Origin: Symbiodinium sp. CCMP2592
Taxonomy: Eukaryota > Sar > Dinophyceae > Suessiales > Symbiodiniaceae
Direction of reading: 5' to 3'
Assembly (NCBI GenBank): GCA_905221615.1
Contig: CAJNDT010005001.1
Coordinates: 620,001 to 684,000, forward strand
DNA: 64,000 bases
Of the stretch, positions 18,785-61,434 are shown one piece after another. The notes beneath the pieces were generated by a model, which was not told the DNA's origin, did not search any database, and was given only the letters and a program-made list of their open reading frames with translations. A program made the translations under genes and the position numbers. Position 1 is the stretch's first letter. Every line of letters starts with the position of its first letter.

Positions 18785-18828
<44 letters not shown>

Positions 18829-19011: not shown

Positions 19012-19067
<56 letters not shown>

Positions 19068-19084
19068 GAATAATGGTGGTAGTG

Positions 19085-19159
<75 letters not shown>

Positions 19160-19236
19160 ATACTAGCAGTAGTGGTAGTAGTAATAGTAGTAGTAGTAGC
19201 AGCAGTAGTAGTAGCAGTGGTAGTGCAGGGGACTTT
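18296..19236. repeat. About 0.9-kb TAG/CAG trinucleotide array with higher-order duplication
   Basis: Long TAG and CAG runs contain repeated landmarks. AGGAATAATGGTGGTAGTGG occurs near 18,541 and 19,066. A GTTATnATAATTAGCAGCAG block occurs near 18,773 and 18,901. The array therefore duplicated in blocks of a few hundred bases. Confidence 0.85.
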
Positions 19237-29795: not shown

Positions 29796-29889
29796 ATAGG
29801 GCTCAATAGTTAGATTGGGGTTTTGAGGTCCATTATACTATACTTGTAAAAAGGAACCCCAAAATAGTGTAATTGATTAAGGCCCCTAG
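29796..29889. mobile_element. MITE family F, copy
   Basis: ATTGGGGTTTTGAGGTCCAT and GATTAAGGCCCCTA. Confidence 0.55.
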
Positions 29890-33330: not shown

Positions 33331-33433
33331 TACAGGGGCCTAAACAATTACCCATACTATTTTCGGTGGGTTCCTTATCATACTTATAATATAATGGGCC
33401 CAAAACCCTATTCCAATTCTGAAGGCCCCTATA
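33331..33433. mobile_element. MITE family F, copy (inverse orientation)
   Basis: ACAGGGGCCTAAACAATTAC at left; CAATTCTGAAGGCCCCTATA at right. Confidence 0.65.
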
Positions 33434-34312
33434 CTAAACTAAACACTTATAGTAGCCCTGTAGGAACCCTTATAGACCCCTTTAAAGGAACCCTGTTCTA
33501 ATTATGAAGGCCCGTATTATATTAGTTAAAAGGTACAGCTACAGTTAGGATCTGGGAACCCAGGATCTTGAGGAACCATGGAAGTCTTTGTCCAAAACCT
33601 TCAAGCGGGCTGCCTGGGAACCTTAAACCCCAAACCCTAAACCCCGAAACCCTTAACCCTAAACCATTAACACGCAACTGAGACCCCATGAGTAAACTTA
33701 AACCTACCGTTTTTAAGGCTTGAGTCCCATAATTCTGATGTCAACAGGAACATGTTGTAGGGTTTGGGGGTCTCCTCAAGGGATCTTTGGGTTGCAGCCA
33801 GGGTGCAAGCAACACCTTCTGGTGCGCCTGCGCGCTGCAACACATAAGGGTGTCGTCAGGGTTCAAGAAGTAGGGTGTACGCAGGTTACCCTAAACCCTA
33901 AACCCTAAAGTTTCTTTCGCTCAGGAGAACTCGCAGCATGTATAGGTACAGCGAGGTTCCGGAGTTCTAGAGTCACTGCAATCCACCAAAACCCGACGTC
34001 CGTGCATCCTGAGGACATGACTTAAACCTGCTGGCTCTGTGGACAACAAATCCCCAACCTTGACTCCTGACTGACCTAATCCTAAATCCTAAACCTTAGA
34101 ACTTACAACCCTAGCCCCGATAGCCTTCAAACCCTTGTTGCTGCAGGCTTGCTTGCAAGGACACCTGGTAGTTTGCCGCTCTTCCGCCAGTTAGGACTGT
34201 GCTCGTGACAGCGCCCCTAGCTTCTGAGCATGCGACTGAGAGCCTTCAAACCGTAAAACCCTAACTTCAGGGTGAAAGGCTTGGACTTCACTGCGGCCGC
34301 CCCTTACGGACC

Positions 34313-38098: not shown

Positions 38099-38646
38099 AT
38101 ATGGGGGACTTGGGGTTTAAATGGGGTTTGGGGTTTACGGTTTGGGTTCCGCTTGCTTTCATGAAGTCCAACCTCCCAGGACGAAAATCTCGGCATTGGA
38201 ACAATAACCTCGCCAGGACCCTGCAGGTACTAAAGAGGCCGAAAAATTACCTGCACTATTTTGGGGATAACTAGTAACCCTATTCTAACTATTAAGTCCC
38301 CCCCCATATTAACAACCACCCCAGGTGCCTCGTAAAGGTGCGGGCCCTCTTGGGGATCATCCATCACAGTCATGACCTGCAAAGCAGCGGTTTAGGGTCG
38401 TTCCAAAGTTGGGACTGCCATGCTTTTCTTGAGATCGAGATGGACAAGTAGAGTAGAGACGCTGTTGCTGTTGAATGTAGAAGATAGCACCGCCGAAAGG
38501 ACTACACCCCTGATAGCAACGGCTGACGAAAAACAACGATTTACTGGTTGTGAAATTGTCGCGCTACCTTATTCTAACAAACCGCTCCCTCAATTACTGT
38601 TCATATCACTAAACCCTAAACCCCTAGGCCTTAAAAACCGTAAACC

Positions 38647-38660
38647 CCTAAACCCTAAGC
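38647..38660. repeat. 14-bp flank CCTAAACCCTAAGC, left copy
   Basis: This is the host sequence directly abutting the left viral edge, and it is identical to the copy at 50,273-50,286. It may be a target duplication, or simply the abundant telomere-like repeat of this genome. Confidence 0.5.
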
Positions 38661-38923
38661 TGAGCTGTCGTCTGAAAGTTATTAGCAAGATTATTATTGA
38701 TATCAGTAATTACTAAATTCTGACCGTCATTAACTGCTATAATCGGATTTATTGCATTATCTAAATCGGTCTGACTTATGCCACCACCTCCACCGCCTCC
38801 GCCAGAGTTTGCTATTTCAGTATCTACATAAGCTTTTGTAGCGTATAAATCATTCAAGGCAGTTCCATTAACAACAATATTATTAGCTGTTAATGTGTTT
38901 GTATTATTCAGTGTTAAGGTCAT
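38648..38923 (-). CDS. Fibre-like / tail-needle-like virion protein, C-terminus truncated by host junction
   Basis: The visible 91 residues are Asn/Thr-rich. They include LYATKAYVDTEIA, a pattern common at the N-terminus of phage and viral fibre proteins, followed by a run of eight glycines and then ISQTDLDNAINP. The last residues (LRV, then stop) are encoded by host telomere-like sequence, because the reading frame crosses the left integration edge at about 38,660. The original protein was therefore longer and its C-terminal part is lost. The start is supported by an upstream TCTAA motif and an AT-rich leader identical in style to those of its neighbours. The position next to the major capsid gene fits a structural role. 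The fibre role is inferred from composition and motif only; another virion surface protein is possible. Confidence 0.6.
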   Translation of the reverse strand: MTLTLNNTNTLTANNIVVNGTALNDLYATKAYVDTEIANSGGGGGGGGISQTDLDNAINPIIAVNDGQNLVITDINNNLANNFQTTAQLRV

Positions 38924-38935
38924 TATTAAATTAAT

Positions 38936-38940
38936 TTAGA
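38936..38940 (-). promoter_or_regulatory. TCTAA motif before fibre-like gene
   Basis: The motif is part of TCTAAATTAATTTAATAATG reading into the start codon. It belongs to the five-gene TCTA set (see findings). Confidence 0.45.
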
Positions 38941-38962
38941 TAATTAATTTAACAATGTTTAT

Positions 38963-40408
38963 TTAATCATACACTTTCAAGCCGAGGTCTTTTATTTCAA
39001 GTATTTGCTCACTCAATAGCGTTATATACATTTGGTCAGGCATTTCGTTAGAAGGAATGGATGCACCAGCAGGTTTTATGCGAATTAACATTTGTTGCCC
39101 AGCACGTGTGTTAATTCCGGTATAACTGCTGTCGATCACACGTTCGAAATTAAAACCGAAAATAAATTGACGGTCTCTATATTGTATAAAATCTACTGCA
39201 AGACTATGTTGATGAAACATCGGAAGGTTTAATGCTTTTCTTAAATGGTAAAAACACTGCGTAATTGAATTACAAGGATATTCAGGGAACAACTGAGAAC
39301 CAAGTTGAATTTGAAACTCTAAGTCTTTATTTACATCATAAATACCGTGTTCTTGCTCGTTGTGAGTTTGATGTGGATGATAAAATCGGCAAAATTCTTT
39401 GTCAGCATATTCATAACCTAATGAAGGACTACCTGATTTATAAAATGTAATAAACGAAGCAACAAGTTTAGAAACAGAACGAATAACAGGAACGCTGATG
39501 TGGTCAGATGCATTTACGATGCTCTGAGATTGAGTAATATAAGTTGTATAAGTGATGGGAAGACCTTTTCCTTCTAATAAATGTTTAACATATTCGTTAT
39601 TAAGTTCGTTTGATAAAGTAGAAACGTCGCATGCACAAAAAACGTTGTTTATTTCGAACTGAGTGCTTGTATTAGAAGCATTACCAGCAGGTAAGGCAAC
39701 ATCTTTAGTAAATTTATTACGGAGGTTTTCACCAATACCAGTGTCAGTTTCATCAAAGTCATCGGGATTAATAAGACAATCATTAGCGGAATTAACTAAT
39801 TCAAGTTCAATTGTTAAGTTTCCCATATATTTTAATGGTAAATACTTAAATTGTGAAAACAAACCGGCTAATGGTTTGAAAGCAACTGTCATTTCGTCTC
39901 TAAAACCTGGGCAAGTTGTGCTATTAACATCATAATCTAAACGAGTTCCGACTTCATTGTTTAAACTTTTAACTTCATCGTCGTATCTGTATCCGAAACT
40001 TTCGTTCGCTTCATCTTTTCTTGCTCCTTGCGACATCATCTTAGAAAACATATGATGAACACGATTGTAATTATCAAAGTCTTCAACAACTTGACTACCA
40101 GCGATTATTCTTATTCGTCTGAAAAAAGAATATGCAGGAGATAAGGGACGAAGTTTTCTGTTCAAATTTGGGTCTTTGTTTTGAAGATTGAAGAAAATAC
40201 GGACACTTTGAGGGTCTAACCAAGTATTATCTTCACCATTTAATGAAATTTTAACAACGCGATTCCCTGACTGCGGAGTATACACGTTTGTCCCAGACGG
40301 GTAAAATCTTACACTGCGTTTTTGTTGCACGTATGAACTACCTTTGTTTAATTTAAATGAAAGGTTATCAACAAGGATGTCCTCGGGGCTGAATGTTTCA
40401 ATAGACAT
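38963..40408 (-). CDS. MCP: Major capsid protein (double jelly-roll), PLV/virophage type
   Basis: The protein builds the icosahedral shell as trimeric capsomers. Running from the internal Met at 40,408 it has 481 residues, typical of PLV capsid proteins. The N-terminal region carries VRFYPSGTNVYTPQSGNR, then DPQSVRIFFNLQN, LRPLSPAYSFFRRIRIIAGS and VEDFDNYNRVHHMF, patterns I recognise from PLV/virophage capsids. A second half with FYHLRKALNLP and ending MYITLLSEQILEIKDLGLKVYD fits the second jelly roll. The frame is open to an upstream Met at 40,474, but I prefer 40,408 (MSIETFSPED): the upstream stretch is low-complexity, overlaps the next gene, and the TCTAA promoter-like motif at 40,426-40,430 lies 22 bases before this start. 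It is intact, with no stop or frameshift. Confidence 0.88.
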   Translation of the reverse strand: MSIETFSPEDILVDNLSFKLNKGSSYVQQKRSVRFYPSGTNVYTPQSGNRVVKISLNGEDNTWLDPQSVRIFFNLQNKDPNLNRKLRPLSPAYSFFRRIRIIAGSQVVEDFDNYNRVHHMFSKMMSQGARKDEANESFGYRYDDEVKSLNNEVGTRLDYDVNSTTCPGFRDEMTVAFKPLAGLFSQFKYLPLKYMGNLTIELELVNSANDCLINPDDFDETDTGIGENLRNKFTKDVALPAGNASNTSTQFEINNVFCACDVSTLSNELNNEYVKHLLEGKGLPITYTTYITQSQSIVNASDHISVPVIRSVSKLVASFITFYKSGSPSLGYEYADKEFCRFYHPHQTHNEQEHGIYDVNKDLEFQIQLGSQLFPEYPCNSITQCFYHLRKALNLPMFHQHSLAVDFIQYRDRQFIFGFNFERVIDSSYTGINTRAGQQMLIRIKPAGASIPSNEMPDQMYITLLSEQILEIKDLGLKVYD

Positions 40409-40425
40409 TTTCTTATATATCTTGG

Positions 40426-40430
40426 TTAGA
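40426..40430 (-). promoter_or_regulatory. TCTAA motif before major capsid gene
   Basis: TTTTTCTAACCAAGATATAT lies upstream, with the motif 22 bases from the preferred ATG at 40,408. It supports that start over the one at 40,474. Confidence 0.45.
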
Positions 40431-40460
40431 AAAATAAATTTGATTAAATACAATTTATAA

Positions 40461-40661
40461 TTATATTTGATCAAATAATTTAAAATTATATGTATTTTCT
40501 TTTATATTCTTCTTCTTCTTAACTATACTATTTATTTCCTGTCTTTCCACATCATTTTCTTCAACTAACTTCCTTATTTCTTCGTAGCTGTTCTGTTTAA
40601 ATTTCTTGTCGGGCTTCGTCTTTTCCATCTGTTCGTAAGTCTGCGCTTTGTAAGAAAACAT
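40461..40661 (-). CDS. Small Lys/Glu-rich protein of unknown function
   Basis: This is a 66-residue charged protein (MFSYKAQTYEQMEK start, KKKKNIKEN near the end) with no recognised domain. Its first 65 bases overlap the 3' end of the GIY-YIG gene in another frame, and it ends before the preferred capsid start. Support for it being real is the TCTAA motif at 40,674-40,678 and the (AAT)n leader directly before the ATG, as for the neighbouring genes, plus the compact layout. It could also be a chance ORF in AT-rich DNA. Confidence 0.45.
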   Translation of the reverse strand: MFSYKAQTYEQMEKTKPDKKFKQNSYEEIRKLVEENDVERQEINSIVKKKKNIKENTYNFKLFDQI

Positions 40662-41556
40662 TATTATTATTATTTAGATTATTTAATGCTTCTTGGTGCT
40701 TTTTAGTTCGTTGATGTCTTCTTATGTCTTCTTTTCTTACTTCACAACCACAACTACAAACGGTTTGAAGTTTTCGTTTTTCAATCACATATTCTTTCTT
40801 TCTGTATTCTACTTTTTGTTGTTTAAGTTTCTCCTTATTCTCAATGCGATATAACTTTTGATATTCTGACATCCTTTCCTTATGTTTGTTTCTCTCTTCG
40901 GCTTTCAAATCTGTATCCTCAATTTGTGGTGATACACTATTTAACGCGTCTTTATGTTTTTTGCTTCGTTGATGACGCATGAGATTTGATTTAGAAATTT
41001 TTTCACCACATTCACAATTGACTTTCACATTTATTTTCTTTTTAATTTCTTCACTGTTATTATTGTAATATTCTCTTGCCTTGTCGTTCAACATTTCTTT
41101 GTTAATCGCACGGTAGTTCTTTTTATATTCTTGTATTTTGGTTTTATTAATATTGGCATATTCTTGTTTATATTGTTGTATTTTCGGCTTGTTTTTGTTG
41201 TAATAACTCTTATAACTTTCCTTTAAATATTCTTCATTGTCCTTTCTCCATTCTTCAATAGTTCTTCCCTCAATTCGTTTATTGAGTGTTGATAAAGACC
41301 TTATGTATTCACCTTCTTTTGCTCTCAACTGTTCTTTGTTTTCACAGGGATATTCTTCAAGAAGTTCAATGTAAAAGTTATTTGCACCATGCTCTCTCAT
41401 TTTAGCATATAAATTCATATTAAAATCTCTCTTGCTATTCATTGCTATTCTATGATCCGCCATGCGTTTGGAAAGGGGTTGGCAACTTGACCCAATATAA
41501 ATGTCGTCGTTTATGTAATTTCTTACACAGTAGATTTTTGCGTTTTTATAGTCCAT
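40597..41556 (-). CDS. GIY-YIG endonuclease with two C-terminal zinc fingers
   Basis: This predicted DNA nuclease has 319 residues. The N-terminal GIY-YIG domain spans about residues 6-95: the GIY element is IYCV (8-11), the YIG element is IYIGSS (19-24), Arg31/Arg36 lie on the following helix and the likely metal-binding Glu is in KEGEYI (81-83). A long Lys/Tyr/Asn-rich helical linker follows. Two fingers of one type follow: C181/C183 with H195/H201, and C269/C271 with H281/H287, each ending in a HQR(S/T)KKH motif. Such nucleases are known in giant viruses, virophages and homing elements. Here it sits between lipase and capsid genes and is not inside another gene, so it need not be a homing enzyme. 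It may act in genome processing or competition with other viruses. A tandem GGTTATATAC pair lies just upstream. Confidence 0.82.
   Translation of the reverse strand: MDYKNAKIYCVRNYINDDIYIGSSCQPLSKRMADHRIAMNSKRDFNMNLYAKMREHGANNFYIELLEEYPCENKEQLRAKEGEYIRSLSTLNKRIEGRTIEEWRKDNEEYLKESYKSYYNKNKPKIQQYKQEYANINKTKIQEYKKNYRAINKEMLNDKAREYYNNNSEEIKKKINVKVNCECGEKISKSNLMRHQRSKKHKDALNSVSPQIEDTDLKAEERNKHKERMSEYQKLYRIENKEKLKQQKVEYRKKEYVIEKRKLQTVCSCGCEVRKEDIRRHQRTKKHQEALNNLNNNNNVFLQSADLRTDGKDEARQEI
40674..40678 (-). promoter_or_regulatory. TCTAA motif before the 66-residue ORF
   Basis: TCTAAATAATAATAATAATG ends in the start codon, the same arrangement as at 43,899 and 44,232. Confidence 0.4.
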
Positions 41557-41560
41557 CTTC

Positions 41561-41580
41561 GGTTATATACGGTTATATAC
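41561..41580 (-). promoter_or_regulatory. Tandem TATA-like promoter candidate of the GIY-YIG gene
   Basis: The 10-mer GGTTATATAC (GTATATAACC on the coding strand) occurs twice in direct tandem and ends five bases before the start codon. It is AT-rich and unlike the TCTAA or GTYTTAAAG motifs at the other genes. Confidence 0.35.
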
Positions 41581-41597
41581 GATTTCATCTTTAAATA

Positions 41598-42218
41598 TCA
41601 ACTCAAAAAATCATCCGCGGTAATTGGAACATCTGAATTTTGATTACCTACATCATTAAAGCCTTCCATAAAATGGTTGGAAAAAGGTTCAACTGTTCCT
41701 TTATCAACTGTAATCGCTCCTTGGTCTAGAATGCTAATGGGATCATATTTACCCCTTATTCGTAGGTTCTGTCCTACCTCTTCTGGTTTTTGAAAAGAAA
41801 ACGTCGGACTTGCATAAACTCTTGTTTTAAATCTATTGTCATAGTCTCTATTCAAATGTAATGTGATCGCACCACCAAGCGAGTGTCCAATAATTTGCTC
41901 TATATTTCCTTCCTCTTCAATCTTCCTTTTAGCATCTTTGAATCTTTGTGTTTCATTAGTTTTGTTGAAAGGCACTTTTGTTATATCATCATATAAATCA
42001 CCTAACCATCTTCCGCCTCCGCCAGTTCCTGCTATGTATAATCTCGTGCCATTTTGATATAAACCGTCGGGGCTTTCATATGCAAGTCTTAATCCGATAG
42101 CATCAGTCAAATTATTTTCGCGACCCGCTAATTCTTCTTTGACATCATCAACAACTTTACTTCTTGTATTAGGTGCTTCATATAATATACCTTCATTTCT
42201 TCTTTTGTTTCTATGCAT
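41598..42218 (-). CDS. Lipase / alpha-beta hydrolase (class 3 lipase-like)
   Basis: This 206-residue protein has the nucleophile elbow IIGHSLGGAITLHL (Ser113 in GHSLGG, 111-116), a plausible acid residue in KYDPIS (Asp159) and a plausible His in SNHFMEGF (His182). The order and spacing match the fungal-lipase-like class 3 fold, although the protein is short. An N-terminal basic segment replaces any signal peptide. The predicted reaction is ester hydrolysis of lipid. In a virus this could help breach host membranes during entry or release. Lipases of this kind are reported in some PLVs and virophages (general knowledge, not checked). It is the first gene of the leftward set and shares a 46-base divergent spacer with the minor capsid gene. 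Confidence 0.8.
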   Translation of the reverse strand: MHRNKRRNEGILYEAPNTRSKVVDDVKEELAGRENNLTDAIGLRLAYESPDGLYQNGTRLYIAGTGGGGRWLGDLYDDITKVPFNKTNETQRFKDAKRKIEEEGNIEQIIGHSLGGAITLHLNRDYDNRFKTRVYASPTFSFQKPEEVGQNLRIRGKYDPISILDQGAITVDKGTVEPFSNHFMEGFNDVGNQNSDVPITADDFLS

Positions 42219-42264
42219 TATAAATTAACTTATAAATTATTTTTCTCAGACATTTTATATTATT

Positions 42265-43110
42265 ATGTTAAAGTTTAAGAAGATATATATTGACAGTAGT
42301 TATAAAGTCAGTGGCACTTCATCTGATTTTACTATTGACTTGCCCGAAACAGTTCAACTAGAAGATAACATAAAGTGTATAATACATGAAGTGAGCATCC
42401 CGCATTCTTGGTTTTCAATTCAACAGGGTTTTAACGACAGCCTCTATTTTTATCAGTTAGACCCTAACGGGGTAAATCCTGATATCATTGACTGTCGCAT
42501 CTTTTCAATTGATGAAGGTAATTATTCCGGCGCGGAACTTGCTGAACGAATTGAATTTTGGTTGAATGATTATTTTGACAGTAGAAATCCTGATGTTGCT
42601 AGAACCGACACTTACACAGTTTCATATAACACAAAACTTAACAAAATTCAAATAGCCGTTAATTATGCTAATCTTATCTTCAATGTTTTTACAGAAGCAG
42701 AAGTAATAGCCAATCAAAACCAATTTACGGGCATTGATGTCAGTAATTTACGTTCAATAAATAAAGTCCTAAATATTGTTGATAATTCACCCACTCACGG
42801 AATTGCATTACCCTTCGTATCGGGTTTTTTAGACCTAGTTCCGATTAAAAACCTTTATTTACACTGTAACGAAATTAGCAACTATAATCAATTGACTGTG
42901 GCTGGCAATTCAAGTATTATAAAGAAAATAAATGTGACAGTTCCATATCTCGGAATAATAAGCGACAATGACATCAATGAGTTTGATTATGTCGATTGCA
43001 GTAATAAAATACTACGTAGGTTAAATTTCAAATTCACCAACGAGTTTAATCAGACTGTTAATTTTAATAATGTTGATTGTAGTTTTTCTCTAACCTTTTT
43101 CAGAAATTAA
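42265..43110 (+). CDS. mCP: Minor capsid protein (penton-like, single jelly-roll candidate)
   Basis: This 281-residue protein begins with KKIYIDSSYKVSGTSSDFTI and continues LPETVQLEDNIKCIIHEVSIPHSW, a pattern I recognise from PLV minor capsid/penton proteins. Those proteins fill the fivefold vertices of the capsid. It is beta-rich in appearance, with further motifs IDEGNYSGAELAERIEFWLN and LYLHCNEIS. The start is the first Met of the frame, 46 bases from the divergent lipase start. It is intact. Together with the major capsid protein it shows that the element encoded a virion and was not just a transposon. I identify it by pattern; a structure prediction would confirm the single jelly roll. 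Confidence 0.75.
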   Translation: MLKFKKIYIDSSYKVSGTSSDFTIDLPETVQLEDNIKCIIHEVSIPHSWFSIQQGFNDSLYFYQLDPNGVNPDIIDCRIFSIDEGNYSGAELAERIEFWLNDYFDSRNPDVARTDTYTVSYNTKLNKIQIAVNYANLIFNVFTEAEVIANQNQFTGIDVSNLRSINKVLNIVDNSPTHGIALPFVSGFLDLVPIKNLYLHCNEISNYNQLTVAGNSSIIKKINVTVPYLGIISDNDINEFDYVDCSNKILRRLNFKFTNEFNQTVNFNNVDCSFSLTFFRN

Positions 43111-43188
43111 CGAAACATCAAAGCAACGAAACAATATAAATCAAACAAGCCAACAAACATCAGAAAACAGTTCCTAAAAAACCTTTCA

Positions 43189-43224
43189 ATATTATTTCTA
43201 TTTTACATAAAATAGAAATAATAT
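43189..43224. terminator. Perfect 17-bp inverted repeat with 2-base loop between two viral genes
   Basis: The arm ATATTATTTCTATTTTA (43,189-43,205) is followed by CA and then its exact reverse complement (43,208-43,224). It lies after the minor capsid gene and 15 bases before the next start. It could act as a transcript-end hairpin, as known in mimivirus-like viruses, or as a promoter element. Confidence 0.5.
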
Positions 43225-43238
43225 AGACTATATTATAT

Positions 43239-43880
43239 ATGTCAGAAGTGCCTGAAACAGTTATTGAAGAAGACACCAACAACGATAATGAAGAAGCAAC
43301 TAAAAATATTGAAGAGCCAAAACCAGAAGAGGTTAAGGAAGAAACACCCGAGGAGACACCAAAGCAAGAACCAAAAGAAGAAGCACCGAAAGAAGACGAA
43401 CCGTTTAAAAACAAAACGGACAGGATGAAACATAAAAAAGTAAAATGTGAAGGATGTCAAGCAGAGATGACACTAAAAACATTAAGATATTCTCACAAAT
43501 GTAACGGTAAAACAGAAGAGAAGCCAATTAAACCGAAACCAAAAGCAAGAAGCGTAGCCGTTAAACCTATTGAAAACCAAGTAATAAAAACCATTAAACC
43601 AACGCGGGTAAAAGAAAAACAAGAAGAAATACAATATTCCGAACCTATTGAGGTAAAAACAAAACCAAGTGTGCCAAGTGGTCGCGAAGCTCGCGAGGCT
43701 CAGTCCGAGCGTCCAGTTAGAATGGAACGCGAAGCTTCGCGTTGCATACGCGAACATACACCACCACTTAAACAATTAACAGCAACAGAACTTTTACAAC
43801 AGCATTACAATGAAATTAGGAAAGCTAAACAACAACAAAAGGTTGAACAAATTAACAGGTTCAAAAGCAGTATGTTTTAA
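43239..43880 (+). CDS. Lys/Glu/Pro-rich zinc-finger protein with a GC-rich palindromic insert
   Basis: This is a 213-residue viral protein of unknown function. Residues 1-55 are very acidic with KEETPEETPKQEP-type repeats. Residues 66-88 form a zinc-binding motif (C70, C73, H86, C88) in KVKCEGCQAEMTLKTLRYSHKC order, resembling single-finger proteins of giant viruses and their parasites. Residues 95-145 are basic and Pro-rich. Residues 148-173 (GREAREAQSERPV onward) are encoded by a markedly GC-rich palindromic stretch, 43,681-43,755, unlike the rest of the gene. The C-terminus is an amphipathic helix (TATELLQQHYNEIRKAKQQQK). It may bind nucleic acid inside the particle or during assembly, which is inference from charge and position between capsid genes. 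Confidence 0.72.
   Translation: MSEVPETVIEEDTNNDNEEATKNIEEPKPEEVKEETPEETPKQEPKEEAPKEDEPFKNKTDRMKHKKVKCEGCQAEMTLKTLRYSHKCNGKTEEKPIKPKPKARSVAVKPIENQVIKTIKPTRVKEKQEEIQYSEPIEVKTKPSVPSGREAREAQSERPVRMEREASRCIREHTPPLKQLTATELLQQHYNEIRKAKQQQKVEQINRFKSSMF
43681..43755. repeat. GC-rich palindromic insert inside a viral coding sequence
   Basis: In otherwise AT-rich viral DNA this segment is dense in CGCGAAGC-type words. It contains the perfect 14-base palindrome CGCGAAGCTTCGCG (43,728-43,741) and a TCGCGA-AGC-TCGCGA hairpin (43,682-43,696). It keeps the reading frame, adding a Glu/Arg/Ala-rich peptide. Confidence 0.6.
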
Positions 43881-43898
43881 TATTAATATTATTTTTTA

Positions 43899-43903
43899 TC
43901 TAA
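43899..43903 (+). promoter_or_regulatory. TCTAA motif before the coiled-coil gene
   Basis: TCTAAATAATATTAATAATG ends in the start codon at 43,916-43,918. It is nearly identical to the motif at 40,674. Confidence 0.45.
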
Positions 43904-43915
43904 ATAATATTAATA

Positions 43916-44236
43916 ATGAGTATCTATAAGAGCAAACCAGAGTTCAAAAGAGCACCCCAAGTTAGCAGGTATTACGATCTTGAAGAATCAATAGGGGTTT
44001 CCAGCAGGTTAAAGGAGTTGCAAGATATGAAGTTAAGAGTTGAAGAAGCCGAGAACAGAGCCAAAAACATTAGGTTAAGAAATGACTGGGTGGAACATCA
44101 GAAGAAAGCACTTTATCAAGGTCAGCTGGATGATGTCAACAGACAATTAGAGAGACCTATGATGCCATTTAGAACAAAAGAAGAGCTGGAAAAACGTCAA
44201 TCCGACCTAAAAAATATTATAGCAAATATAATCTAA
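43916..44236 (+). CDS. Small coiled-coil protein, probable virion or assembly protein
   Basis: This 106-residue protein of unknown function starts with the basic MSIYKSKPEFKRAPQVSRYYD and then has a long charged helix (residues 25-75, RLKELQDMKLRVEEAENRAK onwards) likely to form a coiled coil. It ends with KNIIANII. A TCTAA motif lies 17 bases upstream (43,899-43,903), in the style of the capsid promoters. The stop overlaps the next gene's TCTAA motif, and the next start follows after 9 bases, so the two are probably expressed together. A scaffold or internal capsid role is inferred from context only. Confidence 0.68.
   Translation: MSIYKSKPEFKRAPQVSRYYDLEESIGVSSRLKELQDMKLRVEEAENRAKNIRLRNDWVEHQKKALYQGQLDDVNRQLERPMMPFRTKEELEKRQSDLKNIIANII
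44232..44236 (+). promoter_or_regulatory. TCTAA motif before the 344-residue gene
   Basis: TCTAAATTAATAATATG lies at the start. The TAA of the motif is also the stop codon of the preceding ORF. Confidence 0.45.
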
Positions 44237-44245
44237 ATTAATAAT

Positions 44246-45280
44246 ATGATTAAAACGTTGAAATCTGAACTAAAATTACGTCCGACTTATGACGAAATGA
44301 TAGGAATGATTGAAAGTCAAGGAGACCCTAACCGACCTTCAATTGAAAGTGTCATTGACAGACGAGCAACTATATTTAGAAACAATCAATACGGAAGCCA
44401 GTTTGATAATGTTGATTTTCTGGGTTTGAAGAAGCAGGAAGAAGACAAAGTTAGAAATGAACTGAGACAAGCACAATTAAGAAAAGCAGGTATTGAGCAG
44501 GGCACCTCAACGGGTGTTTTAGCTGTTGGTTCAAGTGGATTCAACACCCCCCTAGAAATTGAACTTTTGGATGGAAAAGAATTAAGCGTTGATGAAATAT
44601 CTAGAATACAGGCGGAAATGGAAGCTCACAATCAAAGAATGAAGGAAGCGCGAGAAAGGGTTATTAGTAGCGCCAGTAGCGATTTAATGGACGTTCATTC
44701 TCAATCATTACCCGCAGGCGTTCCAGTTCATTCAATGGCTTCTGATGTTGCTAGTGACACAATGCCAGAATTAGAAGCAACTGATAGAGCAGATGAAGAA
44801 TCGCAAGAAGAAGATGGCGGAGACCTTATGAATAAAGTTAGTTTGGTAGGTGATTTCAATCCAGATACTTTACTTAATAACCAAGACATTAAATCAACGG
44901 GTCTTCTGATGTTTCAGTTGTTTGTCCGTGATTTGTTGTCGGATGAAATGATTGACTTGGTGGATAGGCTACCTACTGAAGAGAGAAAGAAGCAGTATCT
45001 AGTTTCCATCATTGAAGCCTTGAAAGAAACTGATGAATGGCAACAGTCAGGTTTTGCTGGGAAGACAGTTAAAAAAGAAGCGAAGAAGTTCAGAGAAATG
45101 AGAAGAAATATTAAAAAGAAACCTGCAAATCAAGAAAGCGCTTCTTCAAGTGGAGGTATCGGTTCTGCTATTGTTAGTGGTGCAAAGGCGGTAGGCGGTG
45201 CTGTATTGGATGCCGGTAAAGAAGTTGCCAAGGATGTAGCTCTCGCAGTAGCGCAAGATGCATTATTAAGTATTATATAA
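44246..45280 (+). CDS. Virion-associated protein candidate with LKLRPTY tag and hydrophobic C-terminal helix
   Basis: This is a 344-residue protein without a recognised domain. Its N-terminal LKLRPTYDEM (residues 9-18) followed by a DNVDF motif is shared with the next gene, which points to a common short docking signal. The middle is acidic and Ser/Glu-rich with long helices (EISRIQAEMEAHNQRMKEARERV). Residues about 210-290 look folded (LMFQLFVRDLLSDEMIDLVDRLP). The last 42 residues (303-344) are Gly/Ala/Val-rich with regularly placed Lys and Asp, suggesting an amphipathic or membrane-active helix like those in capsid-internal membrane-lytic proteins. That comparison is inference. The start is preceded by TCTAAATTAATAAT. 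Confidence 0.7.
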   Translation: MIKTLKSELKLRPTYDEMIGMIESQGDPNRPSIESVIDRRATIFRNNQYGSQFDNVDFLGLKKQEEDKVRNELRQAQLRKAGIEQGTSTGVLAVGSSGFNTPLEIELLDGKELSVDEISRIQAEMEAHNQRMKEARERVISSASSDLMDVHSQSLPAGVPVHSMASDVASDTMPELEATDRADEESQEEDGGDLMNKVSLVGDFNPDTLLNNQDIKSTGLLMFQLFVRDLLSDEMIDLVDRLPTEERKKQYLVSIIEALKETDEWQQSGFAGKTVKKEAKKFREMRRNIKKKPANQESASSSGGIGSAIVSGAKAVGGAVLDAGKEVAKDVALAVAQDALLSII

Positions 45281-45293
45281 ATAAGTATATAGA

Positions 45294-46025
45294 ATGCTTA
45301 AACTTCGCCCTACTTATGAACAAATGTTAAAGGAAGCCAGAACTAGAAGGTTAAAAATATTACCAGAAAGACAAAAAAGAACACAGCAAGGTATATTTAT
45401 TGATGATGTTGATTTTGACGAGTTTGATTTGAGTAAGTATGATAGGAAAATAAATAATAATAATAATGATAATCCAGATAAAGCAACACAAACAGATTTT
45501 AATTTAGCTTCATCTTCAAATTCTTCTGTTGGTGAAAGTATGAGAACGTCCGAAGAAGCTGTTAAAGAGACACAAGAAGAAGTTAGTGAAGCATCTAGTA
45601 TAAGAAGCAGTGAGAAATCAGCTGACAGAAAAGAAGAGAAACAAAAAGAGAGAAGCTTAATGAGAAGAATGTTTGATAGTATGTTTGAAGAAGTTGAAGT
45701 AGATATCCCACAAAGTAAGCAAGTAAGTGTTGCAACAGAAGAAAGTCAAGCGAGTAGTTCTTCTTTACCGATTAATGTTAAAAAATCTTATGAGCCATCA
45801 TCTTCATCAAGTTCTAGACGAAGTTCAGGAAGAAGTGCATTACTGCCCGTTGAAGAAGGAGCATTGAGTGAATACGTTCAATCCACCCCACCGGAAACGG
45901 TTCAAAGTTCAGTGCCCTCTGATAGAACAGCTGAATATTTACAAAGTTCCCCTCCTGTTAGTGTTGCCAGTTCTGAAAGGACTATTGAATATATTAGATC
46001 ACGGGGCAGTTCAAGAAAGTCGTAA
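45294..46025 (+). CDS. Ser-rich protein sharing the LKLRPTY N-terminal tag
   Basis: This 243-residue protein begins MLKLRPTYEQM and has a DDVDF motif near residue 38, both shared with the preceding protein. The rest is Ser/Glu-rich and probably disordered, with poly-Asn (KINNNNNDN) and poly-Ser runs. The C-terminus has three imperfect repeats of the form EY(V/L/I)(Q/R)S, two of them followed by a Ser/Thr-Pro-Pro. It starts 14 bases after the previous stop. A structural or scaffold function is suggested by the shared tag and the location in the capsid-side gene cluster. No enzyme motif is visible. Confidence 0.68.
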   Translation: MLKLRPTYEQMLKEARTRRLKILPERQKRTQQGIFIDDVDFDEFDLSKYDRKINNNNNDNPDKATQTDFNLASSSNSSVGESMRTSEEAVKETQEEVSEASSIRSSEKSADRKEEKQKERSLMRRMFDSMFEEVEVDIPQSKQVSVATEESQASSSSLPINVKKSYEPSSSSSSRRSSGRSALLPVEEGALSEYVQSTPPETVQSSVPSDRTAEYLQSSPPVSVASSERTIEYIRSRGSSRKS

Positions 46026-46066
46026 AAATCATTTAAAGACATAATTCATAAAAAGACTTTAAAATA

Positions 46067-46077
46067 GTTTAAAGAAA
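46067..46077 (+). promoter_or_regulatory. GTYTTAAAGRAA motif, copy 1
   Basis: GTTTAAAGAAA lies 35 bases before the small zinc-finger gene. A related GACTTTAAAA word lies just upstream (near 46,055). Confidence 0.4.
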
Positions 46078-46101
46078 TATTAACATAATATAAATAAGAT
46101 A

Positions 46102-46473
46102 ATGACAACCAGAGAGCTAAAAGCCTTGGATATTGACAAACAAATTATTGACTTGAAAACTCAATTATACGAGATGGAGCTAGACCACAGAACAAAAGAA
46201 GAAGTAATCAAAAAACAGTTATCAGAGTTGAATACAAAAACATTTCATTATAAACCTTATCTTGAAAAACTTCCAAAAGACCCAGAATATTTTAAAATGT
46301 ATCAAAGAAAGCGGTATGCAGAAAAACTTTCTAAAAAAATTAATTGTGAAATATGTGGTAGGAAAGTTACGGTTGGAGGATTGACAAAGCATCAAAGAAA
46401 ACCGATATGTATTCCTATAAACAAGCAGGTTGATACAATTGATGAAAATGAAAAAGATAAAAAAAACCGTTAA
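46102..46473 (+). CDS. Small coiled-coil zinc-finger protein
   Basis: This 123-residue protein has an N-terminal helix rich in Leu, Glu and Lys (residues 4-45, likely coiled coil). It then has a zinc-binding motif CEICGRKVTVGGLTKHQRKPIC (C82, C85, H97, C103), and a charged tail. The finger has the same layout as those of the GIY-YIG protein and the 213-residue protein of this element. It is preceded by a GTTTAAAGAAA motif (46,067-46,077) shared with the polymerase-helicase gene and the acidic gene at 49,247, which suggests expression with the replication genes. A DNA-binding regulator is plausible but not shown. Confidence 0.68.
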   Translation: MTTRELKALDIDKQIIDLKTQLYEMELDHRTKEEVIKKQLSELNTKTFHYKPYLEKLPKDPEYFKMYQRKRYAEKLSKKINCEICGRKVTVGGLTKHQRKPICIPINKQVDTIDENEKDKKNR

Positions 46474-46492
46474 AGAAAAATAAATTTAAAAT

Positions 46493-46504
46493 GTCTTAAA
46501 GAAA
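46493..46504 (+). promoter_or_regulatory. GTYTTAAAGRAA motif, copy 2
   Basis: AAATGTCTTAAAGAAATAAC lies 40 bases before the polymerase-helicase start. It shares AATGTCTTAAAG with the copy at 49,215. Confidence 0.5.
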
Positions 46505-46532
46505 TAACACTATATTATTATAATATAATAAT

Positions 46533-48776
46533 ATGGTGTTTGGGCTGACCTTAGAACCTGTAAAATCTTCTTTACACAATATTACTTGTAAAGAGAAATA
46601 TAATTTTAAGCTACTTAATAAATTAATTAATTCTTCTTTATTATTAAAAGACCCTTGGAATAATTATGAAAATGAAAAGGAACAGTTGTTAAAATATATC
46701 AAGACAAAAGGAACTGTGAAATACAGAAGAACTAGCTCATTTGGTAGAACTTTTTGCTACCATAGTGCTGGATTACAATCATTAAGAAAAGAAATTAGGC
46801 ACACTATTGCAAAAGAATTTTACGTTGATATTGATATTGTGAATTGCCACCCAGAAATGCTAAATCAAATATTAAAAAAGAATGGCTTTAACGGTGGTGT
46901 TTGTTTAGATAAGTATGTAAAGGATAGAGAATATTATTTAGATGAAGTGATGAACAAATATCAAGTAGATAGAGATACTGCTAAAAGTTTATTCATTCGT
47001 GTTCTATACGGCGGTTCTTGGTTATCGTGGGCTAAACAGAACAAGCTTGATACAAACGTCAAATATGAGTTTATTGAGCAACTGCAAAATGAAATGAACG
47101 ACATTAACCAGACTATAAGTGTAAGCAATCCCAGAATAAGAGAAGTTGTAGATAAACAGAGACCAAATTTTGACGCTACTATTACAGCATTGTATTTACA
47201 AGAGATAGAGAACCGTATATTGGAAAAGGTATTTAACTACTGTGTTGATAAAGGCTATGTATTACATAACGCTTGTGTGTTATGTTTTGATGGCTTAATG
47301 TTATTAAAGGACAGCTTTCAAGAAGAGTTGTTGCAAGAGTTGAACACACTAATAAAACTGACTTTCGGATTAGACCTTAAATTTATACGAAAAGAAATGG
47401 ATCACGGCTTCACAGAAGAACAAATTGAAAATAGCCAAGTCAGTAAATTAAGAAGCTATGGAGAAGTGAAAGAAGAATTTGAAAAACACAACTTCAAAGT
47501 CAGACAACCATTAACTTATGTTGAAAACAACCCAATCACAAATCAACTTATAAAAAGAGACAAAAACGAGTTCAAAAGCGTTTATGAAAATTTGTTTTTT
47601 GAAGAACTTGATAAGTTCGGAGAAGTTAAGAAAATTAGTTTTGTTGAGAAATGGTTAAAAGATGAGAATATGAGAACTTATGAATGTTTTGATTTCAGAC
47701 CTTGTGAAGAAACACCTGATAATATATTCAACACGTTTAACGGTTTTGATGGAGAGAAAGAAGAATTAGTAAAAGATGATTATGAAAATTCGTTGATGTG
47801 GTTTCATTACAAAAATGTTGTTTGCTGTGGTGATGAACAAATAGAAGAATATTTAACAAAATGGATCGCAAATATAATACAGCATCCACTGAAAAAATCA
47901 AATACTTCTTTAATCCTAAAAGGTAATCAAGGTTGCGGTAAAGATAGCTTCACAAAATTTATAAATTTACTATTAGGTGATGATTATTATTACAACACTG
48001 GAAACCCTGATTTAGTTTTTGGTAAATTTAACGGAAATATTGAGAATAAATGCGTGTGTGTTTTGAATGAAACATCTGGTAAAGATACATTTGAAATTAA
48101 CGAACATATTAAGGAAGCAATCACAAGAAACAATGCAAATATTCATAACAAGGGGATGAAACCTTACACTGTTAGAGACGCTTGTCATTACATCTTTTTA
48201 ACAAATAATAAAAATCCATTAAAAATTCCTGCTGATGATCGTCGCTTCTTCTGTATAGATATGTCTAAACAATATTGTAATAACAGTGATTATTTTAGTA
48301 ATTTACATAATGAACTAGATAGTAAAGAATATATTAACAGTTTATACAACTATTTCAAGAATATTGACGTTTCTAATTATGATTTTATCAAAAACAGACC
48401 TGAAAGTGATACATATGAATATATGCGAGAGCTGAATGTTCCAGTTATGGCTAGGTTTTTAGAAGATTATGTGAATTCTTTGAATAACAAGTTTGAAGAT
48501 GGTGAAGACATGTCAAAACAAGACTTCATTAAACTACGTGCTTTTGAATTTTACAATGAGTTTAACAAATACAAAATTGAATGTAAATATCATTATGAAA
48601 TGACAAAAACTAAATTTGGATTAGATATTAAACTGTTTGAAGGAATTACAAAGAAAAGTGACCGGATTGGCAACTACTACATTCTAGATATTACAGCAAT
48701 TAAACAATATTTAACATCAGAATATAAAATTGAATTTTACACTGACGACCTAACCTTTGACGAAACCCAGTCGTAA
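46533..48776 (+). CDS. TVpol-S3H: TVpol-type DNA polymerase/primase fused to superfamily 3 helicase
   Basis: This 747-residue replication protein fuses two domains. The N-terminal part (about 60-300) is a TVpol domain, distantly related to family A polymerases: motif A is DIDIVNCHP (99-107, with Asp99/Asp101), motif B is K151 to YG (159-160) in KSLFIRVLYGGS, and motif C is CFDG (Asp253). The C-terminal part (about 430-600) is an SF3 helicase: Walker A GNQGCGKDS (464-472), a Walker B-like VCVLNET (508-514), motif C FLTNNKNP (555-562) and DDRR arginine-finger candidates (568-571). This fusion is a known hallmark of virophages, PLVs and related transposons. The start is the first Met after an AT-rich leader, with GTCTTAAAGAAA 40 bases upstream. 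The ORF is intact, so replication capacity appears preserved. Confidence 0.88.
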   Translation: MVFGLTLEPVKSSLHNITCKEKYNFKLLNKLINSSLLLKDPWNNYENEKEQLLKYIKTKGTVKYRRTSSFGRTFCYHSAGLQSLRKEIRHTIAKEFYVDIDIVNCHPEMLNQILKKNGFNGGVCLDKYVKDREYYLDEVMNKYQVDRDTAKSLFIRVLYGGSWLSWAKQNKLDTNVKYEFIEQLQNEMNDINQTISVSNPRIREVVDKQRPNFDATITALYLQEIENRILEKVFNYCVDKGYVLHNACVLCFDGLMLLKDSFQEELLQELNTLIKLTFGLDLKFIRKEMDHGFTEEQIENSQVSKLRSYGEVKEEFEKHNFKVRQPLTYVENNPITNQLIKRDKNEFKSVYENLFFEELDKFGEVKKISFVEKWLKDENMRTYECFDFRPCEETPDNIFNTFNGFDGEKEELVKDDYENSLMWFHYKNVVCCGDEQIEEYLTKWIANIIQHPLKKSNTSLILKGNQGCGKDSFTKFINLLLGDDYYYNTGNPDLVFGKFNGNIENKCVCVLNETSGKDTFEINEHIKEAITRNNANIHNKGMKPYTVRDACHYIFLTNNKNPLKIPADDRRFFCIDMSKQYCNNSDYFSNLHNELDSKEYINSLYNYFKNIDVSNYDFIKNRPESDTYEYMRELNVPVMARFLEDYVNSLNNKFEDGEDMSKQDFIKLRAFEFYNEFNKYKIECKYHYEMTKTKFGLDIKLFEGITKKSDRIGNYYILDITAIKQYLTSEYKIEFYTDDLTFDETQS

Positions 48777-48790
48777 ATCTTCAATACTGT

Positions 48791-48813
48791 CATAATAAAA
48801 TATTTTTATTATG
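48791..48813. terminator. Perfect 10-bp hairpin after the polymerase-helicase gene
   Basis: CATAATAAAA, TAT, TTTTATTATG forms a perfect stem with a 3-base loop, 14 bases after the stop codon. It is a candidate transcript-end hairpin. Confidence 0.45.
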
Positions 48814-49214
48814 ATCGTATTTTTACAACCCACCACATATCTTATACCTACAACCCCATCTCACCACACAAATAATTCTCTATACACTCCCTATATTCTA
48901 TATATTCTATTATATTATATATTATATATTATTATACTTATTTAATATTTATTAGTAGTATATAGTATATATAGAATAGTAGAGAGGAGGATATAGAAGG
49001 ATTTATAGGGCAGTGTGGTGGGGTTGGAGAGTGTGGGGGGTTTTGTAAAAAGTTTCAGAAAATAAAAAAATATTTTTTGAAAATATTTTTTTTTGAAAAA
49101 TATTTTTATGGAGGATTTTTCCGTGTAAATCCTGCCCAAACCTCACCACTCACCACACAGGATATTGAATAAAGAGCCAAAAGCCAGTATTTTATTAAAT
49201 ATCTTATCTTAAAT

Positions 49215-49226
49215 GTCTTAAAGGAA
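49215..49226 (+). promoter_or_regulatory. GTYTTAAAGRAA motif, copy 3
   Basis: AAATGTCTTAAAGGAAAGAT lies 32 bases before the acidic coiled-coil gene. Confidence 0.5.
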
Positions 49227-49246
49227 AGATTACATATAATATTAAT

Positions 49247-49753
49247 ATGGACATTATTAATAAATATTATGATAAGTTAAATAAATTATTACGAAGCAAC
49301 GGCGAGAATTTCCTGAACAACCATATAAAACAAAATCAACACGATAAATTATTAAATAAATACAATAGTTTGTTAGATGACAATGATAAAGAAATTATTA
49401 ACAATCATATGAATGAAATTAACGAGGAAGTCAAAAAAATCAATAATGATATTGAGAATTTAAAAGATTTGATTAATGATTTAAAAGATTTTTTAAATAT
49501 TGAACACGATGACGATAGAATGAAAGCAATATTTCACGGCGATGTAAATGATGAAGATAATGAAAGTGAATATAGTAGCTATGAAGAAACAGAAGTAGAT
49601 GTAAATGAAAACGATGACGAAGAAGATGACAGTTTAACAATAAATGAAAGAATACAGATGGAATGGCAAATAAAAATGCAAGATATGAAAAGAGCAAAAG
49701 AATTACATAATGCCAATAATATTAAGAAAAATGCTAAAAAAAAACTCAGATAA
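49247..49753 (+). CDS. Acidic coiled-coil protein of unknown function
   Basis: This 168-residue protein has helices rich in Asn, Asp, Lys and Leu (residues 1-95; ENLKDLINDLKDFLN is a likely coiled coil). A very acidic patch follows (98-130, including ENDDEEDDS), then a basic helix ends in KKNAKKKLR. It is preceded by GTCTTAAAGGAA (49,215-49,226), the motif shared with the polymerase and small zinc-finger genes. The 3' end overlaps the next gene by 44 bases. No known domain was recognised. Acidic proteins near replication genes can be histone- or DNA-mimic partners, but that is speculation. Confidence 0.65.
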   Translation: MDIINKYYDKLNKLLRSNGENFLNNHIKQNQHDKLLNKYNSLLDDNDKEIINNHMNEINEEVKKINNDIENLKDLINDLKDFLNIEHDDDRMKAIFHGDVNDEDNESEYSSYEETEVDVNENDDEEDDSLTINERIQMEWQIKMQDMKRAKELHNANNIKKNAKKKLR

Positions 49754-50087
49754 TTTCACAAATTCAGAGAAAAATGAAGAAGCTAATGAAGAAAATAATA
49801 ACGAAATTGAAGAAGGCACGTCACCAGCTAAAAATCCTAGTATAATGACAATGGAAAATTTAATAAAATATTATATTAATGAATTTTATGAAAAAACAAC
49901 AAGCCGACAAGATAAAATTTTACGCAGTGATCTTACCAAAGAATTTAATGATTATTTGAAAAATAAAAATTATTTGAATAAAAAGGTTTCAACACAGCAA
50001 ATTAGTAAAATCATTGAAGAAATGGAATTTGAAATTACAAAAACTGAGGGAGTTTATTATTATAGATATATCAAAAAATCAATGTAA
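49710..50087 (+). CDS. Probable winged-helix DNA-binding protein
   Basis: This 125-residue protein overlaps the end of the preceding ORF. An alternative start at 49,731 (MLKKNSDNF) would reduce the overlap. Residues 10-45 are acidic and Asn-rich. Residues about 50-122 (LIKYYINEFYEKTT to EGVYYYRYIK) look like a winged-helix module: helices, a VSTQQISKIIEEM recognition-like helix and a beta wing. This resembles the C-terminal DNA-binding tail often attached to viral primase-helicases, here encoded separately downstream of the helicase. The assignment is by pattern only. It is the last gene before the right edge. Confidence 0.6.
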   Translation: MPIILRKMLKKNSDNFTNSEKNEEANEENNNEIEEGTSPAKNPSIMTMENLIKYYINEFYEKTTSRQDKILRSDLTKEFNDYLKNKNYLNKKVSTQQISKIIEEMEFEITKTEGVYYYRYIKKSM

Positions 50088-50272
50088 TAAACAACGGGGC
50101 AAAATAATTACAAAATAATTATGTAACTTTTTAACAAATATTTAATGATTTCCCCCGACAGATTTTTCATAATATCTTTAAAAAGTTTCGTGCTTAAAAT
50201 TTTATGTCATGGGTGGAAATATTATTAGCTAGGGGCAACTCTTTTTACTTATTTTTGAAGGATTTAGGTATA
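50088..50272. other. Right non-coding end of the provirus
   Basis: This AT-rich tail has a CAAAATAATTA direct repeat (near 50,099-50,120) and a TTTAGGTATACCTAAA palindrome spanning the junction (50,263-50,278). It ends where CCTAAACCCTAAGC host-like sequence begins. I see no match to the left edge that would make a terminal inverted repeat. Confidence 0.45.
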
Positions 50273-50286
50273 CCTAAACCCTAAGC
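50273..50286. repeat. 14-bp flank CCTAAACCCTAAGC, right copy
   Basis: This is the exact repeat of the left flank, placed at the point where AT-rich viral sequence changes to host sequence. Confidence 0.5.
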
Positions 50287-50371
50287 CCAGCAACGGCTGC
50301 TTCACGAGATCCAGGCGGGGGCTTTGGCGGAGCTTTTCCACTTTGATATCTTTACTGCTCCTGTAGATTAA

Positions 50372-50474
50372 TATAAAGGCCTTAATAATTAGAATAGGGT
50401 TTTGGGGCCCAATATAGTTTTGTTATAATAAGGAACCTAAAGCAACAATATTGGCAAATATCTAGGCTCCTGTA
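50372..50474. mobile_element. MITE family F, copy 100 bases right of the provirus
   Basis: AAGGCCTTAATAATTAGAAT with GGGTTTTGGGGCCCAATATA; the right end is divergent. Confidence 0.6.
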
Positions 50475-53685: not shown

Positions 53686-53796
53686 TATAATATACGGGCC
53701 TTGAGAATTACCTATACTCCTTTGGGGGTTCCTTATCCTAAATATGATAGTATAATGGGCCCCAAAACCCTATTCTAATTATTAAGGCCCCTATAT
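53686..53796. mobile_element. MITE family F, copy (inverse orientation)
   Basis: ACGGGCCTTGAGAATTACCT and AATTATTAAGGCCCCTATAT. Confidence 0.65.
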
Positions 53797-53835
53797 TATA
53801 GAACCCCGCTATAGATCCCTCTCGACTGGGAGCAT

Positions 53836-61332: not shown

Positions 61333-61434
61333 TGTAGGGGCCTTAATAATTAGAATAGGGCTTTTGTGCCCATGATACTATAATTACAAAAAGGACCCCC
61401 AAAAATAGTCCAGGTAATTATTCAGGCCCTTACA
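61333..61434. mobile_element. MITE family F, copy
   Basis: TGTAGGGGCCTTAATAATTA at left; GGTAATTATTCAGGCCCTTACA-type end at right (20-base core shared). Confidence 0.65.

What the first reader, a model, noticed from the sequence alone, without database searches (positions are those of the whole stretch)
38661..50272. An integrated Polinton-like virus / virophage-type element with intact core genes
One 11.6-kb AT-rich block contains a major capsid protein, a penton-like protein, a TVpol-SF3 helicase fusion, a lipase and a GIY-YIG nuclease, all open, in a host region otherwise almost free of genes. The ORFs carry no stops or frameshifts, so the insertion is young or under selection. Several of its proteins match no family I know.
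Basis: partly seen in the sequence, partly recalled or inferred. Interest (0 to 1): 0.9.

Follow-up and report, generated by a model that had tools for sequence, protein, structure and literature searches.

The report
Truncated algal virus in host genome
A piece of a small DNA virus of the Polinton-like kind, with capsid and DNA-copying genes still open but its fiber gene apparently cut at one edge and no recognisable packaging or integration genes, sits inside telomere-like repeats of a eukaryote's chromosome; such viral insertions are already known to be common in protists.

Summary
The block is real: 11,612 bp at 31.8% GC in host DNA at 47.4% GC, full of long open frames. Its capsid gene is a double-jelly-roll capsid by fold. 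Its replicase is a family-A polymerase (TVpol-like) fused to a superfamily-3 helicase. It also has a GIY-YIG nuclease, a putative lipase and a probable penton.
It is not "intact". The left edge cuts a fiber-like ORF after 87 codons; the frame then runs into a TTTAGGG-like host repeat. No packaging ATPase, integrase, protease or terminal inverted repeat was recognised. Both edges carry the same 14-nt telomere-like word.
Best reading: a truncated endogenous Polinton-like virus lying in an interstitial telomere-like array.
Endogenous PLVs are well documented in protists, so this is a new member of a known kind. Worth a look: the telomere-like junctions, and a capsid up to 97% identical to relatives beside a replicase with at most 56% over full length.

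The parts
38605..38660 (+). degenerate CCCTAAA (telomere-like) host array at the left edge; its last 14 nt CCTAAACCCTAAGC (38647-38660) are repeated at the right edge
38661..38923 (-). 5' part (87 codons, glycine-rich) of a fiber-like gene, cut by the left junction; the open frame 38648-38923 ends in host repeat (last residues LRV then TAG)
   Evidence: fiber identity inferred from P0101, a relative's capsid fragment joined in frame to a Peptidase_S74 fiber end; no direct sequence match
38963..40408 (-). double-jelly-roll major capsid protein; start probably the Met of MSIETF at 40408 (481 aa); the tools were given 38963-40411, one codon longer
40597..41556 (-). GIY-YIG homing-type endonuclease with two zinc-finger-like stretches
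   Evidence: PF25431, 2 stretches, below cut-off; phrog_314 E 4.5e-11; TIGR01453 E 6e-7, below cut-off; I-TevI domain E 0.0045
41598..42218 (-). putative lipase/alpha-beta hydrolase (GHSLGG elbow)
   Evidence: Hydrolase_4 E 9e-4, below cut-off; weak only
42265..43110 (+). probable penton (minor capsid) protein
   Evidence: 300 relatives; 10 contig lengths shared with capsid hits; 4 of 5 penton relatives scanned match DUF5901 near its cut-off; PBCV-1 P1v1 E 0.027
43239..43880 (+). charged protein with a zinc-finger-like CxxC..H..C stretch (by eye), no family
43916..44236 (+). small coiled protein, no family above cut-off
44246..45280 (+). unknown protein, hydrophobic C-terminus; shares an N-terminal LKLRPTY...VDF stretch with the next ORF
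45294..46025 (+). unknown serine-rich protein, N-terminus like the previous ORF
46102..46473 (+). small zinc-finger protein
   Evidence: zf-C2HC_2 E 8e-4, below cut-off
46533..48776 (+). replicase: family-A polymerase domain (TVpol-like, residues 8-292) fused to SF3 helicase (residues 304-719)
49247..49753 (+). acidic coiled protein, no family above cut-off
49710..50087 (+). small unknown protein, overlaps previous ORF
   Evidence: weak PHROG matches of unknown function
46059..46078 (+). promoter-like motif copy 1 (3 mismatches), upstream of ORF 46102
46486..46505 (+). promoter-like motif copy 2 (the copy the pattern was taken from), upstream of the replicase
49208..49227 (+). promoter-like motif copy 3 (2 mismatches), upstream of ORF 49247
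50273..50286 (+). right copy of CCTAAACCCTAAGC; with the viral end it forms a palindrome TTTAGGTATACCTAAA

Best explanation
This is an endogenous, one-side-truncated Polinton-like virus in the nuclear DNA of a eukaryote, probably an alga or other protist with TTTAGGG-type telomeres. Shown: a DJR capsid gene; a polA-SF3 replicase with conserved catalytic positions; a host/virus step in base composition; a fiber-like ORF broken at the left junction; the same 14-nt telomere-like word at both junctions; and no recognisable ATPase, integrase, protease or terminal repeats. Inferred from known PLVs: the complete virus would copy its DNA with the TVpol-SF3 protein, build an icosahedral capsid from capsid and penton proteins, attach by the fiber and cross a membrane with the lipase, perhaps helped by a giant virus. 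Inferred for the insertion: a broken linear viral DNA, or an element later cut down, was joined into a break in an interstitial telomere-like array by fill-in or microhomology repair, which left CCTAAACCCTAAGC on both sides. This copy presumably cannot package or integrate itself; it could be mobilised only by helper functions, or be expressed.
Against: The capsid model is only moderate (pLDDT 62.1). Scans of IMG/VR found no close relative of capsid, replicase or fiber ORF and one distant replicase relative. Fiber identity is inferred, not matched. The right end could be a true viral end or another truncation. A 14-nt repeat in a repeat-rich host can be coincidence (0.3% within 30 nt and 1.2% within 50 nt in the controls, which I designed after seeing the repeat).
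Confidence: 0.75

Rival explanations
1. A non-autonomous, stably shortened PLV lineage: the 11.6-kb form is itself what moves, borrowing ATPase and integrase from full PLVs in the same cell.
For: All remaining ORFs are open. The nearest capsid is 97% identical on another contig. A duplicated edge sequence fits an insertion event.
Against: One edge lies inside an open reading frame, and no terminal inverted repeat was found among the 25 longest of 73 inverted pairs. A mobile form should have defined ends.
Confidence: 0.1
2. Enzyme-driven insertion into telomere-like repeats: an integrase or recombinase (possibly helped by the GIY-YIG nuclease) chose a CCCTAAA array and left a 14-nt duplication or attachment core; the missing genes were lost afterwards.
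For: Both junctions sit at CCTAAACCCTAAGC, while sequence within 5 nt of a perfect CCTAAACCCTAA word (either strand) makes up 2.0% of the host window. A small fraction of YREC-type cryptophyte PLVs (10 of 232 in one cluster) have TSD-like repeats of 7-23 bp (PMC12220804, section text read).
Against: No integrase was recognised in the element. Insertion sites of Cafeteria virophages showed no sequence specificity (PMC8547959, passages). One locus only.
Confidence: 0.1
3. Assembly artefact: a viral contig, or two collapsed copies, joined to host DNA at repeats.
For: Both joints lie in low-complexity telomere-like sequence, where assemblers err. Bellas et al. report assembly errors in such elements (PMC10120064, section text read).
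Against: Repeat families from both flanks recur through the window. Of the listed relatives, 88 of 120 capsid rows and 69 of 120 penton rows have a longest contig over 100 kb. The right edge passes to non-telomeric host sequence within 14 nt.
Confidence: 0.07
4. A virophage (Sputnik/mavirus class) rather than a PLV.
For: TVpol-SF3 fusions also occur in Sputnik-type virophages (PMC4642659, passages).
Confidence: 0.06

Closest known systems
Gezel/PgVV-like PLVs endogenous in Cymbomonas tetramitiformis (PLVA, PLVB; PMC10675990, Viral Elements section read in full)
   Same: Integrated in a repeat-rich algal genome, lower GC than flanks, many fragments, polymerase either pPolB or TVpol-SF3 among the two sister clades.
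   Different: Their complete genomes are 19.5-29.5 kb and carry a Yrec or DDE gene; the figure legend speaks of terminal inverted repeats on the example genomes; this one is 11.6 kb with none of these recognised. I could not compare sequences directly.
PgVV, PLV-YSL1, PLV-RED1 (Yutin et al. 2015, PMC4642659, passages)
   Same: TVpol fused to SF3 helicase in all three; lipase in PgVV; GIY-YIG and lipase genes occur in PLVs.
   Different: Those are viruses or metagenomic genomes; in the window copy no packaging ATPase was recognised, a gene reported in all PLVs of a later survey (PMC7805220, passage).
Dinoflagellate and other protist endogenous PLVs (Bellas et al. 2023, PMC10120064, abstract and Results parts 1-2 of 3)
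   Same: Capsid genes in a few to thousands of copies per protist genome; insertions sometimes differ in GC from the host.
Cryptophyte PLVs (PMC12220804, Results parts 1-3 of 5 and passages)
   Same: TVpol-SF3, GIY-YIG nucleases and Peptidase_S74 fibers; a few YREC elements with 7-23 bp TSD-like repeats.
   Different: Cryptophyte PLVs are reported to lack membranolytic lipase genes; the window element has a putative lipase.

Membership tests
Polinton-like virus (complete element) | double-jelly-roll major capsid protein | tested here: met
Polinton-like virus (complete element) | minor capsid (penton) protein | tested here: inconclusive
Polinton-like virus (complete element) | A32-type packaging ATPase (reported in all PLVs by Bellas and Sommaruga 2021, passage) | tested here: not met
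   single Walker-A-type match in six frames, in the SF3 helicase; no packaging-ATPase match in Pfam scans of all 13 ORFs
Polinton-like virus (complete element) | terminal inverted repeats | tested here: not met
   no inverted repeat pair joins the two ends among the 25 longest of 73 pairs
Polinton-like virus (complete element) | integrase (rve, DDE or tyrosine recombinase), usual but not universal | tested here: inconclusive
   none recognised by Pfam in 13 ORFs or PHROGs in 10; a divergent recombinase could escape these libraries
Polinton-like virus (complete element) | length about 14-40 kb (PMC12220804 abstract) | tested here: not met
   11,612 bp
Polinton-like virus (complete element) | capsid falls in a published PLV capsid group | not testable with these tools
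   no named reference capsids retrievable; only unnamed relatives
TVpol-SF3 replicase | family-A polymerase domain fused to SF3 helicase | tested here: met
   conserved positions
Virophage (Maveriviricetes) | cysteine protease, ATPase, penton and virophage-type capsid | tested here: inconclusive
   no protease match and no ATPase, but the copy is truncated; capsid type not placed in a tree with virophages
GIY-YIG homing endonuclease | GIY-YIG catalytic domain | tested here: met
   phrog_314 E 4.5e-11; I-TevI domain E 0.0045; TIGR01453 below its cut-off

The most novel reading that the evidence does not exclude
A PLV lineage that inserts into, or is captured preferentially by, interstitial telomere-like arrays. 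It would spread as capsid-plus-replicase pieces that depend on related PLVs for packaging and integration, and its replicase would be exchanged between capsid lineages.
Probability: 0.08. Interest if true: 0.6.

Novelty: new member of a known kind. Interest (0 to 1): 0.3.

Why it matters
PLVs are thought to act as antiviral systems of protists (PMC12220804 abstract), so each well-described copy helps show what survives after endogenisation. Here the capsid and replicase modules survive while the fiber gene is cut and packaging and integration genes are not recognisable. Junctions in telomere-like repeats suggest break repair as a route of endogenisation that needs no integrase; that can be tested by looking at sister copies.

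Tried and rejected
Host copies: the genome search on the window's own assembly did not complete ('busy', same request each time), so copy number, the empty site and sister junctions are untested.

Relatives with DNA context: viral contigs by capsid sequence and capsid alignment gave none; by replicase sequence none, by fiber ORF none, by replicase alignment one distant locus, L001, at 24% identity; genome contigs by capsid alignment none. A tblastn of the replicase against phages gave 402 records, all under 60% identity; the 20 listed fall on the helicase/primase part.

Capsid by sequence alone: no Pfam, PHROG or NCBIfam family and no PDB profile hit; phmmer hits to ferritin at E 0.39-0.49 were judged chance. 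tRNA and Rfam scans of the window gave nothing.

Penton against two ORFs of L001: hhalign probability 9% and 29%; suggestive motif only.

Host as dinoflagellate: a spliced-leader relic search found nothing; TTTAGGG telomeres are reported for dinoflagellates (PMC6395649, PMC11453091, passages) but are not diagnostic. Green algae are equally possible by recall. In Karenia, interstitial telomere signals were rare (PMC6395649, passage), unlike this window.

Replicase exchange: the best capsid relative is 97% and the best penton 95%, but the best full-length replicase is 56%. Of the first 30 of 109 replicase rows entered in the script, one contig length (17,803) is shared with a capsid row and none with a penton row. 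By eye, one row not entered (P0184, match to the helicase part only; 21,965) shares a length with penton row P0334.

Not in print: I found no paper on PLV insertion into telomere-like repeats in the listings of searches of an open-licence library; that is no proof of absence. Other papers seen as passages only: PMC11071213, PMC13037468; PMC12721341 abstract and Results part 1 of 2.
Full report
What is there. The window is eukaryotic DNA of about 47% GC with one AT-rich block at 38661-50272 (31.8% GC, 11,612 bp). The block holds 13 open reading frames covering 88.9% of it. The longest frames far exceed chance: the top four are 750, 512, 347 and 321 codons, against at most 173 in 200 first-order Markov simulations of the block. 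Gene order from the left is: a cut fiber-like ORF, major capsid, GIY-YIG nuclease and putative lipase on the minus strand; then probable penton, five small or unknown ORFs, the replicase and two small ORFs on the plus strand.

Other genes. The GIY-YIG nuclease matches phage homing endonucleases (E 4.5e-11), a group I intron endonuclease model below its cut-off (E 6.3e-7) and the I-TevI domain (E 0.0045). The lipase rests on sub-threshold hydrolase matches (best E 9e-4) and a GHSLGG motif. The penton has 300 relatives; 10 contig lengths are shared between the 120 listed capsid and 120 listed penton relatives. Its naming rests on place, size and one weak profile hit to PBCV-1 chain P1v1 (E 0.027). 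That P1 is the penton protein there is recalled. ORFs 44246-45280 and 45294-46025 share an N-terminal stretch (E 0.002 for the pair).

What is missing. A six-frame search of the block finds one Walker-A-type match, that of the SF3 helicase. No packaging ATPase, protease or integrase appears in Pfam scans of all 13 ORFs, and no inverted repeat among the 25 longest of 73 pairs joins the two ends. A very divergent recombinase could escape these scans. The leftmost ORF is viral for 87 codons and then reads through CTTAGGGTTTAG, a host repeat that supplies its last residues and stop. In one relative, P0101, a capsid fragment is fused in frame to a Peptidase_S74 fiber end (E 4.6e-9). This suggests that a long fiber gene normally follows the capsid gene. 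There is no direct match between the window ORF and that protein, and no S74 end elsewhere in the window. So the element looks truncated on the left, and ATPase, integrase and left terminal repeat were probably lost with that side. This last step is inference.

Junctions. The same 14 nt, CCTAAACCCTAAGC, lie at 38647-38660 and 50273-50286. Among 4000 random pairs of host positions, 11 share 13 nt or more within 30 nt on either side, and 46 of another 4000 within 50 nt; these controls were chosen after the repeat was seen. The left copy ends a degenerate CCCTAAA array (about 38605-38660) that resembles many arrays in the window. Two-unit TTTAGGG words with at most one mismatch occur 116 times in the window, overlapping ones counted, none inside the block. 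The right junction forms a palindrome, TTTAGGTATACCTAAA (by eye). These facts fit capture of viral DNA at a break inside an interstitial telomere-like array, by fill-in or microhomology. They equally allow insertion with a 14-nt duplication. One locus cannot decide. Repeat families of both flanks recur through the window, which speaks against a chimera.

Promoter-like motif. TTAAAATGTCTTAAAG-like words end 19-27 nt before the start codons of three plus-strand ORFs (46102, 46533, 49247); a fourth match lies inside ORF 46102-46473. Four matches in the block compare with a mean of 0.08 and a maximum of 2 in 100 Markov simulations. The pattern was taken from one of the copies, so one match is by construction. 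A shared upstream motif would fit transcription by one viral or giant-virus polymerase; that is untested.

Relatives. In a tree of the window and 80 of the 120 listed capsids the window sits with P0001 (97% identity; support 99/97) in a four-row clade (100/100), inside a large radiation. The 120 listed capsid relatives are all from ENA, with longest contigs from 1.9 kb to 3.5 Mb, 88 of them over 100 kb. The best full-length replicase match is only 56% (P0121, contig 17,803 bp, the same length as that of capsid P0110); one other row has 58% over 41% of the length. In a tree of the window and 40 of 109 replicase hits it groups with four others from ENA contigs of 17.8-389 kb (100/100). Replicase exchange is in line with Cymbomonas, where pPolB or TVpol occurs in genomes of two sister capsid clades (PMC10675990), but is not shown here. 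IMG/VR scans found no close relative.

Known or new. Bellas et al. found over 35,000 endogenous capsid hits in 462 protist genomes (PMC10120064). Cymbomonas carries 178 and 1,340 capsid copies of two Gezel-like clades, many viral sequences only fragments, on average 10.4 GC points below their flanks (PMC10675990). Cryptophyte PLVs combine TVpol-SF3, GIY-YIG and S74 fibers but are reported to lack lipases (PMC12220804). The window element is therefore a new, truncated member of a known kind. By the ATPase criterion it is not filed as a complete PLV but as a PLV-derived fragment.

Limits. The host assembly could not be searched. Age and selection could not be measured for want of relatives' DNA.

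Noticed in passing
window 6334-6891 (-): ORF similar to acid ceramidase / N-acylethanolamine acid amidase (PDB 5u84 E 1.6e-15), the one host gene identified; Pfam gave no match at E 0.01.
   Followed up: partly
window 1-64000, outside 38661-50272: 116 two-unit TTTAGGG words (at most 1 mismatch, overlaps counted) scattered on both strands, against 0.11 expected: an unusual density of interstitial telomere-like repeats in this host.
   Followed up: partly
window 50364-50474, 53727-53798, 33331-33441, 1672-1741, 29798-29858, 61339-61398: Dispersed host repeat family, with an inverted-arm pair at 53747-53797/54040-54090 that looks MITE-like.
   Followed up: partly
window 18425-19224: 800-nt trinucleotide (AGT-type) array giving long spurious ORFs.
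   Followed up: no
window 46059-46078, 46486-46505, 49208-49227: Shared promoter-like motif ending 19-27 nt before three viral start codons.
   Followed up: partly
window 44246-45280 and 45294-46025: Neighbouring ORFs share an N-terminal LKLRPTY...VDF stretch; the first ends in a hydrophobic glycine/alanine-rich tail, perhaps a virion-internal protein.
   Followed up: partly
L001 1652-10292: IMG/VR contig with a distant TVpol-SF3 relative, two neighbouring ORFs that may be pentons (4698-5804, 5822-6925) and an ORF at 9588-10292 with a Walker-A-like GSTRSGKST: perhaps a distant PLV-like virus.
   Followed up: partly
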